Shown here one piece after another: positions 25,752 to 62,467 of a stretch of 64,000 bases of DNA. Source of the stretch: a virus; the IMG/VR virus record IMGVR_UViG_3300009502_000041, positions 1-64,000 of that record. One strand, written 5' to 3'. The translations under genes were made by a program, and so were the position numbers. Position 1 is the stretch's first letter; every line of letters starts with the position of its first letter. The notes under the pieces are model-generated. The model was not told the origin of the DNA. It did no database searches and worked only from the letters and a program-made list of their open reading frames with translations.

Positions 25752-26022
25752 TTTTTAATTTTAATTGTTCCAATTGATATTGGAGATTTTCTTGTAATTT
25801 TTTCATCATTTCTGTATGTTCAAAAATTAATTCACTATCTGTAATATATTTTGGGTTTATACATTCTATTTTTATATTAGTAGATTGTATTGGTATTGAT
25901 ATGATTTCACCCTCAAACGTGCTGGGAATAATTTTTTTTGTTACATTTGTAACAAAACTAGGTATGTCTTCACTACGCACCCCTGCAATTCCAACATATA
26001 TTACAAATATTTTAGTTTCCAT
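25744..26022 (-). CDS. hypothetical protein, 92 aa
   Basis: Start ATG at 26022 (METKIFVIYVGIAGVRSEDI) lies inside the end of the upstream endonuclease gene. An earlier in-frame ATG at 26034 is less likely. It has an alpha/beta pattern and a C-terminal coiled helix (MMKKLQENLQYQLEQLKLK). It overlaps the next gene by 8 nt. No family recognised. Confidence 0.6.
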   Translation of the reverse strand: METKIFVIYVGIAGVRSEDIPSFVTNVTKKIIPSTFEGEIISIPIQSTNIKIECINPKYITDSELIFEHTEMMKKLQENLQYQLEQLKLKNE

Positions 26023-27190
26023 TTTTAGACTCACTTAATAATTGTTTATTTACTTTTATAAATAACTTACAGTCATCAATTAAATTATTTTTTTTCATGT
26101 AATTAAAATAATTATAATTATCATATTTAATAGTTGTAATATTAGGTATATTATTATCTGTAATATGTTTTTGAATAATTTCAAAATTTATTACTTCTTT
26201 AAATTTATTTAATAGATGTTTTAAATTATTTCTCATTACATACAAATAACAACCATAATTATTTATAAACAATTCATTATATGAATTACATTTATTAATT
26301 ACATTTATAGCCAATTCAACATTCCAACAAATACGATCTTTAATTAAGTGTTTAGTGTATTCATTCAATAATTTGGTTTTTTTTAATAGATTATATGTTT
26401 TAGGTTCATTAATAATAAAATCATGGTAATTATTATATTTTTCAATAATTTTAACAACATCGTTTACATTAAAAATATTATTTTTTATTAGTTGATATAA
26501 ATATTTATCATTAATTTCTAATATTTTATTTTCAGTAATATTTGAATTGGTAATATTATTAATTATATGTAAATTTGTTATAAGCTGTTGTTTTATGTCA
26601 AAAATATATTTTTTACTAACTTCATTAATAACAATTAAACTGATGTTATTATTTATACATAAATCAAATTTAATTTTATCTTTAATATTATCAGTGTGCC
26701 ACTGTTTACCATTGTATTCAAATCCTAAATTAAATTCTTCAATATAAATATCAATTTCATAAGGTTTTATTGCCTTTCGATTATTATATTCAACAATACA
26801 ATTAGGAAATAAAATTTTTAAAATTTCAAATAGTAATAATTGTGGGGTAGAGTAATGCTGTTTAATCATGTGTTTACAAACATCATCAACAATTTTTAAT
26901 TGTCGACACGTTGTATACGCACTTGGGTCAGCTAACTGAAATTCACCTCTGGTTTTATATTTTAATGCAACTTCTGTTAAATATTCTATATTTAAATCTC
27001 TACCCACCATTTTATTTCTTTTTCCAATTTGTTTTGAGATATGTAATACAGATTTTCTTAAATTAAGCTCATTCGCTTTATTAGAAATACCCTTTTCAGA
27101 CCTATTCAAAATAATTGATAATTCCAAATCACTTTTGTTTAAAAAATTAGCTTTTAGGTAATCAATATCCGTTTTTATCCAATAATTCAT
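26012..27190 (-). CDS. Vsr-like endonuclease with NGW/CSHM-type repeats
   Basis: 392 aa from ATG at 27190 (MNYWIKTDIDYLKANF), two nt after the PhoH stop; the longer frame would run into phoH. Residues about 10-60 have a helix-turn-helix-like segment (LSIILNRSEKGISNKANELN). One clear copy of the KYKTRGEF...SAYTTCRQL...VCKHM repeat follows at about 70-105. The nuclease core at about 143-166 has EIDIYIEEFNLGFEYNG then KQWHTD, a diverged form of the core in the three larger endonucleases. The C-terminal half contains two or three degenerate copies of the repeat (KYNNYHDF, KCNSYNELF). Its end overlaps the next gene by 11 nt. Probably a homing endonuclease inserted after phoH. Confidence 0.65.
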   Translation of the reverse strand: MNYWIKTDIDYLKANFLNKSDLELSIILNRSEKGISNKANELNLRKSVLHISKQIGKRNKMVGRDLNIEYLTEVALKYKTRGEFQLADPSAYTTCRQLKIVDDVCKHMIKQHYSTPQLLLFEILKILFPNCIVEYNNRKAIKPYEIDIYIEEFNLGFEYNGKQWHTDNIKDKIKFDLCINNNISLIVINEVSKKYIFDIKQQLITNLHIINNITNSNITENKILEINDKYLYQLIKNNIFNVNDVVKIIEKYNNYHDFIINEPKTYNLLKKTKLLNEYTKHLIKDRICWNVELAINVINKCNSYNELFINNYGCYLYVMRNNLKHLLNKFKEVINFEIIQKHITDNNIPNITTIKYDNYNYFNYMKKNNLIDDCKLFIKVNKQLLSESKNGN

Positions 27191-27191
27191 T

Positions 27192-27962
27192 TTATTTTCT
27201 TTTTTCTTTAAAGTACTCGTCAAATTTATTTTCAATAACATCAATAAGCGGATTTCTAACATTTTTATCAGCATTACTCATTTCAACAACACCAATATTT
27301 TCAGTATTATTAAACATTTTAATTAAATGTTTTAATGAACTGTCTGATTTATTTGTAATATCAATTTGATTGGTATCACCTAACATAATTAATTTACAAT
27401 TTTCCCCAATGCGAGTCATTGAGGTATGTGAATTATCCATCGTTATATTTTGTGCTTCATCACTGATTATTAAGCAATTATCTAAACTAACCCCACGCAT
27501 AAACGCAAGTGGTAATGGTTTAACAATTTCTTTTTCAATTAAAGATTTTAATGCAATGCTCCCAATTATTTTTTCCATGTTAATATAATAACTTAACATG
27601 AAGGGTGTTATTTTATCGTCCAAACTTCCTTTAAGATAACCTAAATCTTCTGATTTTAAAGTAGTTACCGATTTTACTAAATATATTTTATTATAACCAT
27701 TTTCTTTTTTTCTTAAAAGACTTAAAGCATATGCAACAGCAATATAAGTTTTACCAGAACCTGCTCTACCACCGCATATTGTAATTTCATTATTTTTTAT
27801 TGAGTTTATTAAATTTTTTTGACTGTCATTTTTTGCTGTTAATTTTATTTCTGTTTTTATAATTTTACTAATTTCTTCTTTAACCCTTGAAGAAACAATA
27901 TTACAATCTGTTGATGTTAGTTCCTGAAAATCCTTTTCTTCCTTAACTCTATCCCTGCCCAT
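27192..27962 (-). CDS. phoH: PhoH-like ATPase
   Basis: 256 aa. A PhoH-family P-loop ATPase: Walker A GGRAGSGKTY at about 60-69, the family segment KIYLVKSVTTLKSEDLGYLK, PLAFMRGVSLDNCLIISDEA with Walker B (ISDEAQN), MTRIGENCKLIMLGDTNQID (sensor motif) and a conserved R near the end. Widespread in large phages; a role in nucleic-acid metabolism under stress is suspected, not proven. First gene of a minus-strand operon ending with the sigma-like gene. No promoter motif of either class is obvious upstream. Confidence 0.9.
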   Translation of the reverse strand: MGRDRVKEEKDFQELTSTDCNIVSSRVKEEISKIIKTEIKLTAKNDSQKNLINSIKNNEITICGGRAGSGKTYIAVAYALSLLRKKENGYNKIYLVKSVTTLKSEDLGYLKGSLDDKITPFMLSYYINMEKIIGSIALKSLIEKEIVKPLPLAFMRGVSLDNCLIISDEAQNITMDNSHTSMTRIGENCKLIMLGDTNQIDITNKSDSSLKHLIKMFNNTENIGVVEMSNADKNVRNPLIDVIENKFDEYFKEKRK

Positions 27963-37775: not shown

Positions 37776-38125
37776 ATGAAATACGATGAAATAGTTAAGC
37801 AGTTTCAAAGCAATATTTTTGAAACGTTAACAATAACAGAAGTAGCTTTGTTAAAAAATCTAAAGGTGCTTATTCTAGCGCATTTAAAAATGGTTGGTTT
37901 GATGAAGTTTGTTCACATATGATTATAAAACATAAACCAAAAAATTATTGGAATAAGGAAATGTGCACAAAAGAAGCGTTAAAATATAACGGCAGATACG
38001 AATTTCAAAAAAATTCAATGAGTGCTTATCGTTCGGCAATTTTAAATGGCTGGCTAGATGAGGTTTGTTCGCATATGGTAATTTCTGAAATCTATTTAAA
38101 AACACAAAAGAATAATGAAAGATAA
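37776..38125 (+). pseudogene. frameshifted remnant of NGW/CSHM-repeat nuclease family
   Basis: From ATG 37776 the first frame (MKYDEIVKQFQSNIF) loses the repeat pattern near 37830. A second frame continues with NNRSSFVKKSKGAYSSAF, then KNGWFDEVCSHM, and one more copy, ALKYNGRYEFQKNSMSAYRS then NGWLDEVCSHM. These are two copies of the 45-residue repeat of the GIY-YIG protein at 60033-61418. No nuclease core remains. It lies between baseplate and sugar genes. The second frame (from 37919) is still open and could make a 68-aa repeat-only protein. Confidence 0.7.
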
Positions 38126-53225: not shown

Positions 53226-56200
53226 ATGTCAACATTTCGAAACTATTTTTTAAAGAATAATACTTTAATAGATAATAATCTAACAAATTCTTCACAGAAT
53301 CCAGTGTGTGAAATCTCATACGGGACTTATAATAAGCAAGTTAGCAGATTTATTTTTGATGTTGATTTAAGTAATTTACAAGATAAAATTGCAAATGGTT
53401 TTATTAACCCAAATAGAATTGTTAAACATGTATTGCATATGACCAATACAATTAGTGGTGCAGAACAATATGTTGGCAAAAAATCGTATTCGTTAAGTAT
53501 TGATAGAGCAACTAGTTTTAATTTAGAAGTTTTTAATGTTAATGAGGATTGGGATGAAGGGGGTGGTTATGATTTTATTTATAATGATAGCCAATTATTG
53601 GATTCTACGGTATATCCACAAGCATCAAATTGGTTTAGCAGAAAAACCGCAGATACATGGTTAACGGCTGGAGCATATTTTAGTGGTAATACTGAAATAA
53701 TTGGAACACAAAGATTCGAAACTGGTGGTGAGAATCTTGAAATAGATGTTACTGATTATATTAATCGAAGATTATTATATGGTAATATTTATACTGGCAC
53801 TACTAATTATACAGGTACTACTAACTATACTGGTGAAACTACGGGAACTACTGGTTATACAGGAACTACTGGTTATACAGGAACTACTGGTTATACAGCC
53901 ACGACATTTGGATTAGGTATTAAGTTCACAGATGTTTATGAACAACTCGATCCTGAATTTAGACAAGCAGTTGCGTTTTATACAAAACATACAAATACTT
54001 TTTATGAACCATACGTAGAGACAATTATTGATGATACAATCACTGACGATAGAAATTATTTTTATTTGGATAAAGATAATGATTTATATTTATATGCAAA
54101 TGCAGGACAGTCACAACAAAATGTTATTGTAAATCAAGTTAATATATATGATAATGAAGATATGTTACTTGGTAGTTTATCAGGTAACTCAATAGTTAAT
54201 GTAAGTAAAGGTGTTTATAAAATAACGTTAAACATTGATTCACAATCATATCCAGATGCCGTTATTTTTAGGGATGAGTGGATTATAACTATTAATAATA
54301 AAGAGATCACACATAACGGTGAATTTTATTTAATATCTCAGGATAAATATTTTACCTTTAATCAATCAAACCAAATTGATTTTAATAACTATTTTTTCTA
54401 TTTCTGGGGAATTGGGGAAAAGGAAAATATTAGAGCAGGTGCGGTTAAAAAAATTAAATTAACAATAAAAGAATTGTATTCAAACCAAGATAGTTTTTTA
54501 CCATTAGAAATTGAATATCGTTTATTCACAACAGTTGGAAAAAAATACGAAATTGATATAATTCCGTTTACTCTTACAAATAGAACTAATACTGGATATG
54601 AGTTTAGTCTTGATACTTCGTGGTTAATTCCCCAAGACTATTATTTACAAATTAGAATGAAAAATGGTGATTATTATGAAAATAAGCAAACACTATCGTT
54701 TACAATTGTAAGTGACGGTATTTTTGGCAATTTATCACATAAAATAACCACAACAAAAGCACCTAAAACAACCACCAGTACATCAACAAGTACTAGCACC
54801 AGTACCAGTACATCAACAAGCACTAGTACTAGCACCAGTACCAGTACATCTACAAGCACCAGTACATCTACAAGTACTAGTACATCTACCAGTACAAGTA
54901 CCACAACTAGTACAAGCACCACAACTAGTACATCTACTAGTACAAGCACCACAACTAGTAGTACAACCACGATAGCGCCAATACTTAATCCATTAACATT
55001 GTCTTTTGACAGTATTTTAAACGCTAATTTATTAATTGGTGGGAATTCATCGGATGTTAATGTGTGGAATACATTTTTTGATTTACCCACTAACGGTAAT
55101 TCGTTTGTAATTGCAACGGTAAGTGGAAATAGTGTAACTTTGCTTGGGGGAAACAATATTCATTTAAGAGATTCATTATTCTATGTAAATACTGTTCAAG
55201 GTAATACAACTTTAGTATCGATTGTTGATAGTTCATGTATTATTTCATCAGGAAATCAAGGTTTTATGTGTTGTGTTTCATTAACCACAATAAGTTTACC
55301 TTTATTAATTTCGGATAATGGACATTTTCTTTATGGGTGTACTTCCTTAACAACCGTTGATTTACCAAAACTGACCAATTCGGGAATATTTGGTTTTGGG
55401 TTTTGCACTTCATTAACATCAATTAATTTACCAAGTTTAATTACAACAGGAGATTATTGTTTTTATAATAGTACTGGTTTATATACTGTTAATTTACCAT
55501 TTTGTGTTAATTTGGGTAGTACCACTGGAAATGACTATGTATTTGGCGGAATTAGTGGAAGAGCTATTACACTTTCCGTTCCTCCAGCACTAATGACGTG
55601 TAATAATGGAAATCCAGATGGAGATATACAAGATTTCCTGTTTAATAATAATTCATCAATAATTTCCCCAGTAATATCTTTAAGTTTTAATAATATTACA
55701 AATGCCGATTTATTAATTGGAGGGAGTTCGTTAGATGTTAATGTTTGGAATACATTTTTTGATTTACCAAATAATGGAAATCCTTTTATTTCTGTGAGTG
55801 TTAGTGGAAACACTGTTGAATTATTTGGAGGAGAAGGTATTTTTCTTAAAGATTCATTATTTGATGATGCTGGAAGATATGGAACGAATTTATTATCTTT
55901 TATAGATTATGGAAGTATTATGAGCACTGGTTATGATTGTTTTGGGGCTGATAATAATGGGGGATGTCCTAATTTAATCACAGTGGTTCTACCAAGTGTT
56001 GCAACACTTGGTAATTATTGTTTTTTGGGGTGTTTTTCCTTAACAACCGTTGATTTACCAAGTTTGATTGTCGCAGGTCAAGGGAGTTTCCAACAATGTT
56101 CAAGTTTAATATCTATTAATTTTCCAAGTTTAATTAATATTAAAGACTATTGTTTTTATGGTTGTACATCATTAATAAATATCAATATACCTGCTTGTAT

Positions 56201-57410
56201 AAATTTAGGAACAACAACAGGAAATAACAATGTATTTTCAAACATTAACTCAAATATCATCACATTAACAGTTCCTTCTACATTGATGTCTTGTGATGGA
56301 GGTTTACCTGATGGAGATATAGTTATATTACAAGGAAATAACACAGTAACCGTCTTAACTAATGCGTTACAAATATCTATGACGTTTGTGAACACAAGGA
56401 GTTTAACTTTTTTTATTGGCAATGATCCTAGTGATATCAATGCGTGGAATACTAAATTTAATCTACCTACAAACGGTAATATATTTACTTCTGTTATTGT
56501 AAGAGGAAATTCTGTTATATTATTAGGTGGAAGTAATATTCATTTGAAAGACAACTTATTTAATCTTACTCTTGGTAGTAATGATAATGGCTTAGTGTCT
56601 TTTATTGATGGTGGATGTATTATAAGTGCAGGAAACAATGTGTTTGGAAATCAAAATCAACAAAAAGCCAATAGTAGTTTAACTACAATTAATCTTTCTG
56701 CTTTAACTACTGCTGGAAATGATTGTTTTTCTAATTGTTTTATGAATTACTTTAATGCACCATTATTGGAAACAATTGGTAATTCATGTTTCTATTACTG
56801 TTATTATTTGACTTCACTTAGTCTTCCTAGTCTAATAACCGCAGGGAATGAATCGTTTGCTTTGCTGAACTCATTAACAAATCTTGACTTACCTAAATTA
56901 ACAACTGCTGGAACTTCCTGTATTTCTTCTTGTTCTAGTTTGACTTCACTTAGTCTTCCTAGTCTAATAACCGCTGGGTATCGTTGTTTATATAACAATA
57001 CTAATTTAACCTCTTATGATTTACCAAAATTAACAAGTGCTGGCAGTGAATGTTTTAGTGGTTGTGTAGCATTAGTAAATGCTAATTTTCCAAGTTTAAC
57101 TACTGCTGGAAATACTTGTTTTTCTTATTGTACAGGACTAGTAAATATTAATTTACCAAGTTTAACTATTATTAGGGATAATTCTTTTACTGAATGCAGT
57201 TCATTAATATCAATTAATTTACCAATTTGTACAAATTTGGGATCAACTATTGGTAACAATGGTGTATTTGATGGAATAATAGGAAATACAATAACATTAA
57301 CCATACCTTCAGCATTAATGACTTGTAATGATGGTATAACCACTTTTGATCCTGATGGAGATATTCAATATTTACAGGCAAATAATACGGTAAATGTGAT
57401 AACCGTTTAA
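53226..57410 (+). CDS. tail-fibre adhesin with Ser/Thr-repeat stalk and BspA-like leucine-rich repeats
   Basis: 1394 aa. An N-terminal virion-associated part (about 1-500) contains YTGTTNYTG-type repeats at about 190-225. Then comes a pure Ser/Thr stretch (STSTSTST, about 518-580). The C-terminal 810 residues consist of three modules. Each begins with an IGG-type DVNVWNTFFDLP element and ends with a V(F)GG...ALMTCN element before DGDI. Between them lie LRR_5/BspA-type repeats of about 23 residues (CTSLTTVDLPKL, SLISINFPSL). BspA repeats bind surface ligands, so this is probably the receptor-binding fibre. The Ser/Thr stalk is a plausible target of the phage's own glycosyltransferases. Confidence 0.75.
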   Translation: MSTFRNYFLKNNTLIDNNLTNSSQNPVCEISYGTYNKQVSRFIFDVDLSNLQDKIANGFINPNRIVKHVLHMTNTISGAEQYVGKKSYSLSIDRATSFNLEVFNVNEDWDEGGGYDFIYNDSQLLDSTVYPQASNWFSRKTADTWLTAGAYFSGNTEIIGTQRFETGGENLEIDVTDYINRRLLYGNIYTGTTNYTGTTNYTGETTGTTGYTGTTGYTGTTGYTATTFGLGIKFTDVYEQLDPEFRQAVAFYTKHTNTFYEPYVETIIDDTITDDRNYFYLDKDNDLYLYANAGQSQQNVIVNQVNIYDNEDMLLGSLSGNSIVNVSKGVYKITLNIDSQSYPDAVIFRDEWIITINNKEITHNGEFYLISQDKYFTFNQSNQIDFNNYFFYFWGIGEKENIRAGAVKKIKLTIKELYSNQDSFLPLEIEYRLFTTVGKKYEIDIIPFTLTNRTNTGYEFSLDTSWLIPQDYYLQIRMKNGDYYENKQTLSFTIVSDGIFGNLSHKITTTKAPKTTTSTSTSTSTSTSTSTSTSTSTSTSTSTSTSTSTSTSTSTSTSTTTSTSTTTSTSTSTSTTTSSTTTIAPILNPLTLSFDSILNANLLIGGNSSDVNVWNTFFDLPTNGNSFVIATVSGNSVTLLGGNNIHLRDSLFYVNTVQGNTTLVSIVDSSCIISSGNQGFMCCVSLTTISLPLLISDNGHFLYGCTSLTTVDLPKLTNSGIFGFGFCTSLTSINLPSLITTGDYCFYNSTGLYTVNLPFCVNLGSTTGNDYVFGGISGRAITLSVPPALMTCNNGNPDGDIQDFLFNNNSSIISPVISLSFNNITNADLLIGGSSLDVNVWNTFFDLPNNGNPFISVSVSGNTVELFGGEGIFLKDSLFDDAGRYGTNLLSFIDYGSIMSTGYDCFGADNNGGCPNLITVVLPSVATLGNYCFLGCFSLTTVDLPSLIVAGQGSFQQCSSLISINFPSLINIKDYCFYGCTSLININIPACINLGTTTGNNNVFSNINSNIITLTVPSTLMSCDGGLPDGDIVILQGNNTVTVLTNALQISMTFVNTRSLTFFIGNDPSDINAWNTKFNLPTNGNIFTSVIVRGNSVILLGGSNIHLKDNLFNLTLGSNDNGLVSFIDGGCIISAGNNVFGNQNQQKANSSLTTINLSALTTAGNDCFSNCFMNYFNAPLLETIGNSCFYYCYYLTSLSLPSLITAGNESFALLNSLTNLDLPKLTTAGTSCISSCSSLTSLSLPSLITAGYRCLYNNTNLTSYDLPKLTSAGSECFSGCVALVNANFPSLTTAGNTCFSYCTGLVNINLPSLTIIRDNSFTECSSLISINLPICTNLGSTIGNNGVFDGIIGNTITLTIPSALMTCNDGITTFDPDGDIQYLQANNTVNVITV
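53790..53900 (+). repeat. YTGTT/GYTGTT tandem repeat in adhesin
   Basis: Repeated 15- to 18-nt units (tactggtta tacaggaac type) encode NYTGTTNYTGE and GYTGTTGYTGTT. The last three copies are nearly identical. In frame, no stop; a likely hotspot for length change. Confidence 0.75.
54769..54972 (+). repeat. Ser/Thr dipeptide repeat in adhesin
   Basis: About 200 nt of AGTAC(A/T), AGCACC and ACTAGT-type units encode an almost uninterrupted (ST)n run with short T clusters. Codons are mixed between AGT/AGC/TCA/TCT and ACA/ACC/ACT, so the DNA is not perfectly repetitive. It translates without frameshift. Confidence 0.8.
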
Positions 57411-58833: not shown

Positions 58834-59937
58834 ATGGCAAAAATAGAAGAAGTTCCCTCAAACGATAAGGGACGTAAACCAACAGCGAAAAAAACATTTT
58901 CTTTGGATGATTTTAAGAAAAAAATAGGGGGAGAAGATATACCAGATAAACCATTACTTTGGATTCCAATTGATAGTGCATTGGAAAATGTTACAGGTAT
59001 GCCCGGTTTTCCGAAAGGATACATATCAACCTGTTGTGGTTTTTCGAACAGTGGAAAATCTACTGCAATTTGTTTAGGAATTGTTTCTGCACAGAAAATG
59101 GGATTACTACCAATAATTATTGATTTAGAAAATAATTTAAGTAAATATAGGTTAACCACAATGGGATTTGATTGGGATGGTGATTATATTTTTATTGATA
59201 ATGAATATTTACTTACAAATTTTGGTAAAGTTAGCGATAAGACTAGAAATTATGCCTCAATTGAAGATTTGGCTAATTGCATAAGATTCTTTTTAAAGGA
59301 GCAAGAATTGGGAAATATACCATATGACATGGTGTTTGCAATCGATTCTATTGGTACGTTAAATTGTAATAAAACAATTAATGCTGCTGAAAAAAATGAG
59401 TCAGATTCAAATTTCTGGAATGCTGGTGCATACGAAAAAGAATTTATGTACCTATTTAATGATGTAATTCCAAACAGTAGAAAATCAAATAAGCCGTATA
59501 CTAATACAGTTATTGCCGTTCAAAAAATAGGCAGAGATGCTATGAATAATACCATAACCATGAAAGGTGGACGTACTTGGGAATATGTACCAAGATTGCA
59601 ATATTATTTTGGGGGTATTTTATCTAAGGGGGTTAAAAAAATCACAGCCGTTTCAAAAAAGAAAGAAATTTCATATGGGGTTTCCGTAAAGGTAAATATT
59701 TTGAAAAACCAGATCGACGGCCCGCTTGGTGGTATTTCGATGGAAGGTTCAATTATATCAGTGCCACACGGTTTTATTACTGCAGAAGGGATTGAGGAAT
59801 ATAAAAAGAAAAATATTTTATATTTCCGTAATTTATTTGGAAACGATGAATTAACTGTTGATGACATTAGTACTGGTGAACGAATTGAAGGTAGTGATGG
59901 TAAATTATTATATGATTTTATTGATAAGTCTGAATAA
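58834..59937 (+). CDS. uvsX: UvsX/RecA-like recombinase
   Basis: 367 aa. Walker A at about 69-77 in CGFSNSGKSTAICLG. LGLLPIIIDLENNLSKYRLT resembles the strand after the P-loop helix, and MVFAIDSIGTLNCNKTI is Walker B. KPYTNTVIAVQKIGRDAMN and GGRTWEYVPRLQYYFGGIL match the L2 region and core strands. Catalyses strand exchange on gp32-coated DNA. Followed by a terminator and by a homing-type nuclease. Confidence 0.85.
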   Translation: MAKIEEVPSNDKGRKPTAKKTFSLDDFKKKIGGEDIPDKPLLWIPIDSALENVTGMPGFPKGYISTCCGFSNSGKSTAICLGIVSAQKMGLLPIIIDLENNLSKYRLTTMGFDWDGDYIFIDNEYLLTNFGKVSDKTRNYASIEDLANCIRFFLKEQELGNIPYDMVFAIDSIGTLNCNKTINAAEKNESDSNFWNAGAYEKEFMYLFNDVIPNSRKSNKPYTNTVIAVQKIGRDAMNNTITMKGGRTWEYVPRLQYYFGGILSKGVKKITAVSKKKEISYGVSVKVNILKNQIDGPLGGISMEGSIISVPHGFITAEGIEEYKKKNILYFRNLFGNDELTVDDISTGERIEGSDGKLLYDFIDKSE

Positions 59938-60032: not shown

Positions 60033-61418
60033 ATGAAACCTATTAATTATTGGACATACGAAAATTGTAAAGTAGAAGCATTGAAATACCACAATAGGGT
60101 TGATTTTAGAATAAAATCCAGCGGTGCTTATTATTCGTCCCGTAAAAATGGGTGGCTAGAGGAAATTTGTTCACACATTATAAACAAGAAAAAAACAAGT
60201 AATTATTGGACTTATGATAAGTGTAAAGAAGAGGCATTAAAATATAAAACAACAAATGAGTTTAAACTAAATTCCGTGGGGGCATATGGATCATCAAAGA
60301 GAAATGGGTGGATGGTGAAAATATGTTTACATATGATCCAAAAGAAAAATTCTAGTTATTGGGAAAATATTGAAAATTGTAAAAACGAAGCATCGAAATA
60401 TAAAAATAGAGGAGAGTTCAAATCAAAATCTAATTTATCATTTAAAATATCTCGTAAAAATGGTTGGTTAAATATTGTTTCTCCACTTACGAATGTCAAT
60501 GCTGCCCCAAATAATTATTGGATATACGAAAGGTGTAAAAAGGAGGCATTAAAGTATTCCACGAGAAGTGAATTTAAAAGGAAATCCATAGGTGCTTATG
60601 CTGCTTGTTTGAGAAACAAATGGGATGATGAATTATTTTCACATATGATAAGAATTGGAAATAGATATTTAAAATGTGTTTATGTTTATGAGTTTTCTGA
60701 TAATTGTGCGTATGTTGGACTTACATATAATATGGAAAGTAGAACTCATGATAGAAATAAAACTGCAACCGATTCTGTTACAAAACATATTAAAGAAACG
60801 GGGATAAAAAACCCAACATTAAAACTGTTAACTGATTATATTAATGTTGATGAGGCGGTTATTTTAGAAGAAAAATATGTGAAAGAATATAAAAATAATG
60901 GTTGGTGTTTATTAAATAGTGCAAAAACTGGTAGTGTTGGTAGTGTTAGAAAATGGAACAAAGAAAAGTGTTTGAATGTTGCATTAAGATGTAAAACATA
61001 TGGTGAATTTAGTAAAAATTTTTCTGGGGCGTACCAATGTGCCTGTACAAACGGTTGGTTGAATGAAATTTGTTCTCATTTAACAAGAAAAAATAAAAAA
61101 GGGGGTTATTGGACAAAAGAATTGTGTAAATTGGAATTCTTGAAATATAAAACACTAAAGGAAATAAGATTAAATTCCAAAACGGCATATTCTAAGGCAT
61201 CTAAGAATGGATGGCTCAGTGAATTAAATTCGCATATGATAAGGTTTGTAAAAAGTAGAGGATATTGGACAAAAGAACGTTGTTTAGAAGAGGCACTTAA
61301 ACATTTTAAAAAAACTGAGTTTCGTAAAAAAAATGGAAGCACATATGTTATTGCATGCAAAAATGGTTGGCTAAATGATATTTGCTCTCATATGATCAAA
61401 AAAGAACCTAAATTATGA
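60033..61418 (+). CDS. GIY-YIG nuclease with seven NGW/CSHM repeats
   Basis: 461 aa. Four repeats of about 45 aa in residues 1-210 (YWTYENCKVEALKYHNRVDF then GAYYSSRKNGWLEEICSHI is the first). A GIY-YIG-like core at about 212-300 reads CVYVYEFSDNCAYVGLTYN then METSRTHDR-type, with LLEEKYVKEYKNNG. Three more repeats run to the end (KNGWLNDICSHM last). Repeat 3 has lost its C-terminal Cys-Ser-His. The order repeats, nuclease, repeats suggests a DNA-recognition scaffold wrapped around a single cutting domain. Sits between uvsX and rnh; overlaps rnh by 4 nt. Probably a homing endonuclease; whether every repeat contacts DNA is unknown. Confidence 0.75.
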   Translation: MKPINYWTYENCKVEALKYHNRVDFRIKSSGAYYSSRKNGWLEEICSHIINKKKTSNYWTYDKCKEEALKYKTTNEFKLNSVGAYGSSKRNGWMVKICLHMIQKKNSSYWENIENCKNEASKYKNRGEFKSKSNLSFKISRKNGWLNIVSPLTNVNAAPNNYWIYERCKKEALKYSTRSEFKRKSIGAYAACLRNKWDDELFSHMIRIGNRYLKCVYVYEFSDNCAYVGLTYNMESRTHDRNKTATDSVTKHIKETGIKNPTLKLLTDYINVDEAVILEEKYVKEYKNNGWCLLNSAKTGSVGSVRKWNKEKCLNVALRCKTYGEFSKNFSGAYQCACTNGWLNEICSHLTRKNKKGGYWTKELCKLEFLKYKTLKEIRLNSKTAYSKASKNGWLSELNSHMIRFVKSRGYWTKERCLEEALKHFKKTEFRKKNGSTYVIACKNGWLNDICSHMIKKEPKL

Positions 61419-62467
61419 AAACCCGCACATTATTAATTGATGGATCATATTTATTGAAACGTTCGTTTCATGGGGCTAAAGACATTTACAATTCTAAAGG
61501 AATACATATTGGTGCAATATATCAATTTTTAACCACCGTAAGAATGTTAATATCAAAACACGCAATAAACCGCTGTGTGGTTTTCTGGGACGGTGATCAA
61601 GGAGGAAAACAACGTTATTTAATTAGTTCTGATTATAAAAGTAACAGAAAAAATAAGGATTGGCATAATAGAATCGAGCTTTCTGATTTCGAAATAAAAA
61701 AAGAGAAAGAAAAAGAAGAATCGATTTTATATCAACGAATAAAAATTAAAAATTATCTTGAGAACGTTTTTATAAAACAAATTGAGGTGTTAGAATGTGA
61801 GGCAGATGACCTAATTGCCAAGTATTGTATTGAACATAATAATAAGGAAGAGCTATTTTTATTCACAAATGACCGTGACTTCGCTCAACTTTTATATTTA
61901 AATATGGTCATAATTTTTGGTAACATACCCGAACCTGTTAATAAGACTAATTACATGATGCATTTTAATCATCATTATTCAAATGCATTAACATTAAAAA
62001 TAATTTGTGGAGATGTTGCTGATAATATTAAAGGAATTGAGGGAGTTGGTGAGGATACGCTATTAAAATTATTTCCAGAACTAAAATTTAAGCATTTATC
62101 TGATAGGGAGATTTGCACCAAAGCAGACGAGATAAATAAAGATAGAATTTTAAATAAAAAGAAACCTTTAAAATCGTTAGAAAACTTACTTAACAATATT
62201 GAGCGTTTAAAGACTAATTTTAAGCTTATTAATTTGCGTGAGCCAATGCTTAACGAGGAAGCAATTGAAGAGTTAGAGCAGCTAGAAATGCCATTATCTC
62301 CTGATAATAGAGGAAGTAAGTATCTTTATAGATTAATGATGGAAGATGAGTTTTTAAAAGTGTATGGTAGTACATTTGTACAATATGTAGAACCGTTTTA
62401 TACTGTAATAATGTATGAAAAACAATTACTTACAGAATATAGAAAAAATAATAAAAATAGTTTATAA
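61415..62467 (+). CDS. rnh: 5' to 3' exonuclease, T4 RNase H-like
   Basis: 350 aa. Removes RNA primers from Okazaki fragments (FEN-type). Metal-binding signatures: LLIDGSYLLKRSFHGA at the N-terminus (Asp9), VVFWDGDQGGKQRY, LECEADDLIAKYCIEHN (three acids of the metal cluster), LFTNDRDFAQLLY, and ICGDVADNIKGIEGVGEDTL (helix-hairpin-helix-like). Arrangement and length (T4 enzyme is 305 aa) fit. Overlaps the upstream nuclease by 4 nt. Confidence 0.85.
   Translation: MKTRTLLIDGSYLLKRSFHGAKDIYNSKGIHIGAIYQFLTTVRMLISKHAINRCVVFWDGDQGGKQRYLISSDYKSNRKNKDWHNRIELSDFEIKKEKEKEESILYQRIKIKNYLENVFIKQIEVLECEADDLIAKYCIEHNNKEELFLFTNDRDFAQLLYLNMVIIFGNIPEPVNKTNYMMHFNHHYSNALTLKIICGDVADNIKGIEGVGEDTLLKLFPELKFKHLSDREICTKADEINKDRILNKKKPLKSLENLLNNIERLKTNFKLINLREPMLNEEAIEELEQLEMPLSPDNRGSKYLYRLMMEDEFLKVYGSTFVQYVEPFYTVIMYEKQLLTEYRKNNKNSL

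What the first reader, a model, noticed from the sequence alone, without database searches (positions are those of the whole stretch)
60033..61418. Seven-repeat GIY-YIG protein with repeats on both sides of the nuclease
A 45-residue repeat occurs four times before and three times after a single GIY-YIG core. The repeat has variable positions between invariant Y-W, KY, EF, AY and NGW...CSHM residues. Such a layout resembles a modular DNA reader, by analogy with other tandem-repeat binders, but I know of no described code for it.
Basis: partly seen in the sequence, partly recalled or inferred. Interest (0 to 1): 0.8.

Follow-up and report, generated by a model that had tools for sequence, protein, structure and literature searches.

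The report
Phage nuclease with modular DNA-reader repeats
A phage gene encodes a DNA-cutting enzyme set in the middle of a row of small helical repeats that very probably read DNA piece by piece, and hundreds of relatives suggest an undescribed modular DNA-recognition system whose targets change quickly.

Summary
In detail: 461 aa, four repeats, one GIY-YIG core, three repeats. The unit is a 43-residue domain (WTKEKCKEEALKYKTRSEFRKNSSGAYNAARKNGWLDEICSHM) plus a linker, usually 9 residues (xxxxKPxGY). Pfam, NCBIfam, PADLOC and the PDB hold no match; the protein falls in PHROG 20046 (unknown function). I found over 500 repeats in about 120 proteins of phages and bacteria, in 32 before+after layouts (0+3 to 8+4). 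The same repeat also joins MUG113/T5orf172-type and PDDEXK nucleases and SF2 helicases. Models give four short helices per repeat; the core matches I-TevI. Variation concentrates on five positions (17, 20, 24, 28, 31) of helices 2 and 3. They differ between repeats of one protein (dN/dS about 1.6, against 0.24 elsewhere) yet are kept between orthologous repeats. The gene behaves as a mobile free-standing nuclease: the uvsX-exonuclease gap is occupied in 15 and empty in 35 of 53 related phages (at least 7 gains/losses). Best reading: a homing-type GIY-YIG endonuclease with a modular, fast-evolving reader array. DNA binding, a code, and scaling of site length with repeat number remain untested.

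The parts
60033..61418 (+). whole gene, 461 aa: 4 repeats + GIY-YIG core + 3 repeats
60051..60179 (+). repeat 1 (aa 7-49)
   Evidence: HMM
60207..60335 (+). repeat 2 (aa 59-101)
   Evidence: HMM
60360..60488 (+). repeat 3 (about aa 110-152), degenerate C-terminal end
   Evidence: HMM
60519..60647 (+). repeat 4 (aa 163-205)
   Evidence: HMM
60648..60953 (+). GIY-YIG nuclease cassette (aa 206-307, 102 aa), invariant Y217, Y227, G229, R237, E279, N295
60954..61082 (+). repeat 5 (aa 308-350)
   Evidence: HMM
61110..61238 (+). repeat 6 (aa 360-402)
   Evidence: HMM
61266..61394 (+). repeat 7 (aa 412-454)
   Evidence: HMM
58834..59937 (+). left flank: UvsX-like recombinase gene
   Evidence: phrog_97 E 1.5e-15
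61415..62467 (+). right flank: exonuclease gene, start overlaps the nuclease gene's stop (ATGA)
   Evidence: phrog_107 E 1.7e-25; sequence
26015..27277 (-). second gene with the same repeat: PDDEXK-like homing endonuclease with one clear repeat before and two weaker (perhaps three) after the nuclease
37832..38125 (+). two-repeat relic without nuclease, open frame cut at its 5' side

Best explanation
A free-standing, homing-type (mobile) GIY-YIG endonuclease with a modular reader. The repeats are beads on a string: each is a small four-helix domain whose helix 2 - helix 3 element, with hypervariable positions 17, 20, 24, 28 and 31, faces DNA and reads a short subsite. The roughly 9-residue linkers (xxxxKPxGY) set the step. 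Repeats on both sides hold the I-TevI-like core over the cutting site. Arrays evolve by gain, loss and shuffling of repeats and by substitution at the reading positions, so that the target shifts while the framework stays. Shown: architecture, identity of the core, concentration of variation, mobility of the gene. Inferred: DNA binding, which residues touch bases, cleavage, and homing as the way it spreads.
For: I-TevI-like core with conserved catalytic positions. Repeat joined to MUG113/T5orf172-type, PDDEXK and helicase domains. Five positions chosen on 408 non-Vibrio repeats show dN/dS 1.58 against 0.24 elsewhere in 45 held-out Vibrio-phage repeats, and are kept between orthologous repeats (0.51 against 0.17 at equal framework identity). 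Linker of 9 residues in 183 of 299 cases, nuclease insert usually about 102 aa at any joint. Every repeat has net charge +4 to +6. Site occupied in 15, empty in 35 of 53 phages, at least 7 changes; remnants; different gene lineages between 100% identical UvsX genes. Repeated reader domains are known in T5orf172 homing genes (PMC10448857).
Against: No experiment. Array geometry is not predicted (pTM 0.40) and the repeat has no PDB match, so its DNA-binding face is inferred. In Schizotequatroviruses the reading residues change almost completely at one fixed locus, which is not what simple homing to that junction predicts. Helices 2 and 3 are separated by one residue only, shorter than a classical helix-turn-helix turn. 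Pairs used for dN/dS are not independent and orthologue counts are small.
Confidence: 0.62

Rival explanations
1. A weapon rather than a homing enzyme: the array targets DNA of competing phages, satellites or plasmids (in bacteria, of invading phages), and the fast-changing reading residues follow an arms race. Spread of the gene itself is secondary.
For: Reading residues turn over (0.07-0.3 identity) while the framework stays 0.7-0.9 identical at one fixed locus in Schizotequatroviruses. Five of 12 inspected bacterial loci lie near defence-type genes: HsdM with DUF1016/YhcG, AbiE with bSEFIR, MNT-like genes, an AriA-like ATPase.
Against: No background rate was computed for the neighbours; PADLOC has no model for the protein; sporadic occupancy, remnants and replacement at the uvsX-exonuclease gap are typical of homing genes.
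Confidence: 0.2
2. A homing endonuclease whose repeats bind DNA without sequence preference, only raising affinity; specificity comes from the core or from elsewhere, and array length is free to drift.
For: Array length varies widely between close relatives (1+2 to 4+2 at one locus); repeats are basic.
Against: Diversifying change confined to five positions between repeats together with conservation between orthologues is not expected of a non-specific binder.
Confidence: 0.1
3. The repeats are distant, diverged copies of known homing-nuclease reader domains (NUMOD or the CapR/DUF723/DUF4379 zinc fingers), so the protein is an ordinary member of a known homing family.
For: Same catalytic core fold and similar genomic behaviour; repeated reader domains exist in T5orf172 homing genes.
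Against: No Pfam match of the repeats to NUMOD, DUF723 or DUF4379 in the window protein or in ten diverse relatives; no set of conserved metal ligands in the repeat.
Confidence: 0.06
4. The repeats are a protein- or RNA-binding scaffold.
For: Small helical repeats can be either; no DNA complex is known.
Against: Fused to several kinds of DNA enzymes, basic, and independent beads rather than a continuous solenoid in the models (low pTM).
Confidence: 0.02

Closest known systems
T5orf172 homing endonuclease genes with repeated CapR/DUF723/DUF4379 zinc-finger domains (PMC10448857)
   Same: Phage-borne mobile nucleases with repeated, recombining DNA-binding beads; our repeat too occurs with MUG113/T5orf172-type cores (L009, L030)
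   Different: Reader is a four-helix repeat without zinc ligands; usual core is GIY-YIG, placed at any joint of the array rather than at one end
I-TevI and the Seg enzymes of T4-like phages (GIY-YIG homing endonucleases)
   Same: Catalytic core (1ln0, TMt 0.71); free-standing mobile genes in phage gene gaps
TALE-like repeat proteins
   Same: Constant framework with few hypervariable positions, array length variation, order kept between orthologues
   Different: No sequence relation found; 43-aa beads joined by linkers, pairs usually much less alike (about 45-50% for window repeats), no known code, nuclease naturally inside the array
PHROG 20046 (unknown function)
   Same: Window protein matches at E 6.5e-84 and the window's PDDEXK protein at 1.4e-10
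   Different: Carries no name or function; repeat unit not defined there

Membership tests
GIY-YIG nuclease superfamily | GIY-YIG fold with conserved Tyr, Tyr-x-Gly, Arg, Glu, Asn | tested here: met
   Invariant Y217, Y227, G229, R237, E279, N295 over 26 homologues; match to I-TevI and UvrC structures; Pfam GIY-YIG above cut-off in homologue L008, though not in the window protein itself
GIY-YIG nuclease superfamily | DNA cleavage | not testable with these tools
   needs an assay
Free-standing homing endonuclease genes | Sporadic presence at one site, occupied and empty alleles, turnover and decay | tested here: met
   15 occupied, 35 empty of 53, at least 7 changes; remnants L159, L191; core and flank histories differ
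Free-standing homing endonuclease genes | Cuts the empty allele at or near the site and converts it | not testable with these tools
   needs cleavage and mixed-infection experiments
I-TevI/NUMOD homing endonucleases | NUMOD or I-TevI-type reader domains C-terminal to the core | tested here: not met
   No NUMOD match; readers on both sides of the core
   Only C40 and H42 are highly conserved, C6 is often L, I or V; no Pfam match
TALE-like modular readers | Few hypervariable positions in a constant framework | tested here: met
   Positions 17, 20, 24, 28, 31
TALE-like modular readers | One repeat reads one base by a known code | not testable with these tools
   no binding data
TALE-like modular readers | Sequence or fold homology to TALE repeats | tested here: not met
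   PDB sequence searches and Foldseek gave no TALE hit
Classical helix-turn-helix | Helix, turn of about three residues, recognition helix | tested here: inconclusive
   Helices of 8, 7, 9 and 4 residues with one non-helical residue between helices 2 and 3; no coordinates to measure angles, no PDB match

The most novel reading that the evidence does not exclude
The repeat is a new class of modular DNA reader: each 43-aa domain reads a fixed short subsite through positions 17, 20, 24, 28 and 31, repeats add up in order with a linker-set step, and nucleases can sit between any two repeats, so that natural arrays of up to 12 repeats are site-specific nucleases with a decipherable code.
Probability: 0.35. 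Interest if true: 0.9.

Novelty: new variant of a known kind. Interest (0 to 1): 0.7.

Why it matters
Modular DNA-reading repeats are rare (TALE-like proteins and zinc fingers are the well-known ones) and each became a laboratory tool. This one is small, comes already joined to nucleases or helicases, tolerates a nuclease in the middle of the array, and exists as natural allelic series that differ in the presumed reading residues, which makes its specificity rules directly testable. It also gives a clear case of how phage nucleases may switch targets quickly.

Tried and rejected
Zinc finger: rejected for lack of conserved ligands. NUMOD, DUF723, DUF4379: no match. Pfam 'Insulin' (E 2e-13) and 'SusF_SusE' on a Vibrio homologue: rejected as artefacts of many near-identical repeats. 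PDB search by single sequence and by profile: chance-level hits only. Foldseek and VIA on the two-repeat model: no PDB chain; BFVD gave mainly family members. The search for related loci with the repeat alignment failed for lack of conserved stretches, so DNA patterns were used. A loose orthologue definition gave little contrast and was replaced by order-preserving array alignment of a few clear pairs. Literature: no paper with the repeat's motif or the PHROG number; the TALE-inspired repeat screen PMC5472282 mentions neither nucleases nor phages. Chance origin of the repeats: rejected. The tree of cores is too short to say how many lineages entered the uvsX site.

Full report
WHAT IS THERE. 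The ORF at 60033-61418 (+) encodes 461 aa: four repeats, a GIY-YIG core (aa 206-307) and three repeats. Repeat scores are 70-91 bits, against at most 12.6 in 5000 shuffles. The window lies in a 74,270-base virus record. The gene stands between a UvsX-like recombinase gene and an exonuclease gene; its stop overlaps the start of the latter as ATGA. Pfam and NCBIfam find nothing significant; the protein belongs to PHROG 20046, unknown function, E 6.5e-84.

THE UNIT. From 345 repeats in 84 ORFs the unit is 43 aa, WTKEKCKEEALKYKTRSEFRKNSSGAYNAARKNGWLDEICSHM. W1, A10, F19, C40, H42 and M43 are nearly invariant; Y13, A26, Y27 and A30 are strongly conserved. The linker between repeats is 9 residues in 183 of 299 cases, pattern xxxxKPxGY. 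When the nuclease lies between two repeats its insert is mostly 98-107 aa, mode 102. Layouts before and after the core run from 0+3 and 3+0 to 8+4; 32 different ones were counted, some from proteins cut by contig ends. The core behaves as a cassette that can occupy any joint of the array, or an end.

FAMILY. Relatives occur in Schizotequatrovirus Vibrio phages, Rhizobium and Burkholderia phages, Lak phages, a 636-kb phage, many IMG/VR contigs and bacterial contigs. The same repeat is joined to MUG113-type domains (L009 above the Pfam cut-off, L030 below it; L013, L014, L095, L102, L113 by eye), to PDDEXK-like nucleases (window 26015-27277 by PHROG; L028, L088, L098 by eye), to an HNH-like part (L015, by eye) and to SF2 helicases (L045 by Pfam; L099, L104 by eye). 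A domain shared by unrelated DNA enzymes is most simply a DNA-binding module; this is inference.

STRUCTURE. AlphaFold2 on the full protein: mean pLDDT 84.5; most repeats near 90 with four helices each (repeat 1: 9-16, 22-28, 30-38, 42-45), repeat 3 poorer; pTM 0.40, so relative placement is not predicted. Two-repeat model from 107 sequences: pLDDT 88, pTM 0.50, same helices. The core matches I-TevI (1ln0, TMt 0.71, prob 1.00; E 0.39 for the whole query) and UvrC. The repeats match nothing in the PDB; for so small a domain that is weak evidence of novelty. No coordinates were available, so the exposure of residues is inferred from helix register.

THE READING POSITIONS. The most variable positions are 28, 31, 17, 24 and 20: 17 and 20 in helix 2; 24, 28 and 31 in helix 3. 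I chose these five from 408 repeats excluding Vibrio phages and tested them on 45 repeats of nine Schizotequatrovirus genes: dN/dS 1.58 there, 0.24 elsewhere; none of 20,000 random position sets did as well. A first count over 19 proteins, not held out, agrees. Pairs are not independent, pS is about 0.4, and positions 24-27 contain small gaps, so the value is approximate; the contrast is large. Orthologues behave in the opposite way: in arrays aligned in order, at framework identity 0.55-0.70 the five positions are 0.51 identical (n=9) against 0.17 among repeats of the same proteins (n=38); at 0.70-0.85 it is 0.80 (n=10) against 0.35 (n=4). Numbers are small. Constant framework, divergence between repeats and conservation between orthologues is what base-reading residues should show.

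MOBILITY. Among 53 different phages in which uvsX and the exonuclease gene are neighbours, 15 have this kind of gene between them, 35 have a gap under 160 bases and 3 have something else; the occupied state needs 9 changes on the tree, 7 of them forced by starred branches. L159 and L191 hold one-repeat pieces, L159 being near a contig end or decayed. L156 and L201 have 100% identical UvsX but cores 52% identical and different arrays, while the L156 core is 69-73% identical to those of L174 and L186, whose UvsX is 55-56% identical. Core and flanks thus have different histories. One repeat of L160 nearly equals repeat 1 of L156 at another array position, so modules are shuffled.

AN ALLELIC SERIES. 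At one locus of Schizotequatroviruses I find 3+3 with 1+4 in tandem (PVA23), 3+3 with 2+3 (R11Z, Va3), 4+2 (R10Z), 3+3 (XZ1), 2+3 (Grn1), 3+2 (VH1_2019), 2+2 (VH7D), 1+2 (ST2), and none in ValKK3, where a short stretch with a small ORF stands instead. In PVA23 and VH7D a terminator-like GGGTTGCGCTATGCAGCCC-T run (a few bases variable) stands before and after each gene; ValKK3 has one copy. Reading residues differ almost completely between many alleles (about 0.07-0.3) although the framework is about 0.7-0.9 identical. So the presumed targets change while the gene stays. This fits poorly with homing to that exact junction and leaves room for a role against competitor DNA.

BACTERIAL COPIES. Of 12 loci inspected, 5 lie near defence-type genes, others near an rpsB-like gene (by eye), metabolic genes or prophage-type primase genes. 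No background was computed, so this is a lead only, and some contigs may be phage.

JUDGEMENT. It is a GIY-YIG nuclease by tested features and behaves as a free-standing homing-type gene by tested mobility. It is not filed as an I-TevI/NUMOD protein or as a CapR/DUF723 zinc-finger protein, since their defining reader domains were sought and not found. It most likely works as a modular reader joined to a cutter. The nearest published kind is the T5orf172 homing genes with repeated zinc fingers (PMC10448857); the reader domain, its placement on both sides and the clear reading positions are what is new as far as I could search. No paper with this motif was found, but the held library lacks most subscription papers.

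Noticed in passing
window 26015-27277 (-): PDDEXK-like homing endonuclease (phrog_3339, E 3e-12) carrying one clear copy of the same repeat before the nuclease and two weaker (perhaps three) after it.
   Followed up: partly
window 37832-38125 (+): Two repeats without nuclease, open frame interrupted at the 5' side, next to a baseplate-wedge-like gene: a relic of a second GIY-repeat gene.
   Followed up: partly
L045 1552-3513 (-), L099 4027-6060 (-), L104 1728-3593 (+): SF2-type helicases with three or four copies of the repeat at the C-terminal end.
   Followed up: partly
L107 2290-6975: Type I methyltransferase (HsdM), DUF1016/YhcG nuclease and a GIY-repeat gene in a row on a Prevotellaceae contig.
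   Followed up: partly
L015 1961-3652: Vibrio phage EniLVp02 protein with an HNH-like N-terminal part and six repeats, next to uvsY.
   Followed up: no
L103 1511-4583: Two GIY-repeat genes in tandem (3+4 and 6+3 repeats) on one Prevotella contig.
   Followed up: no
window 53226-57410 (+): 1394-aa protein with a long Thr-Ser low-complexity tract followed by leucine-rich, BspA-like repeats; no PHROG match.
   Followed up: no
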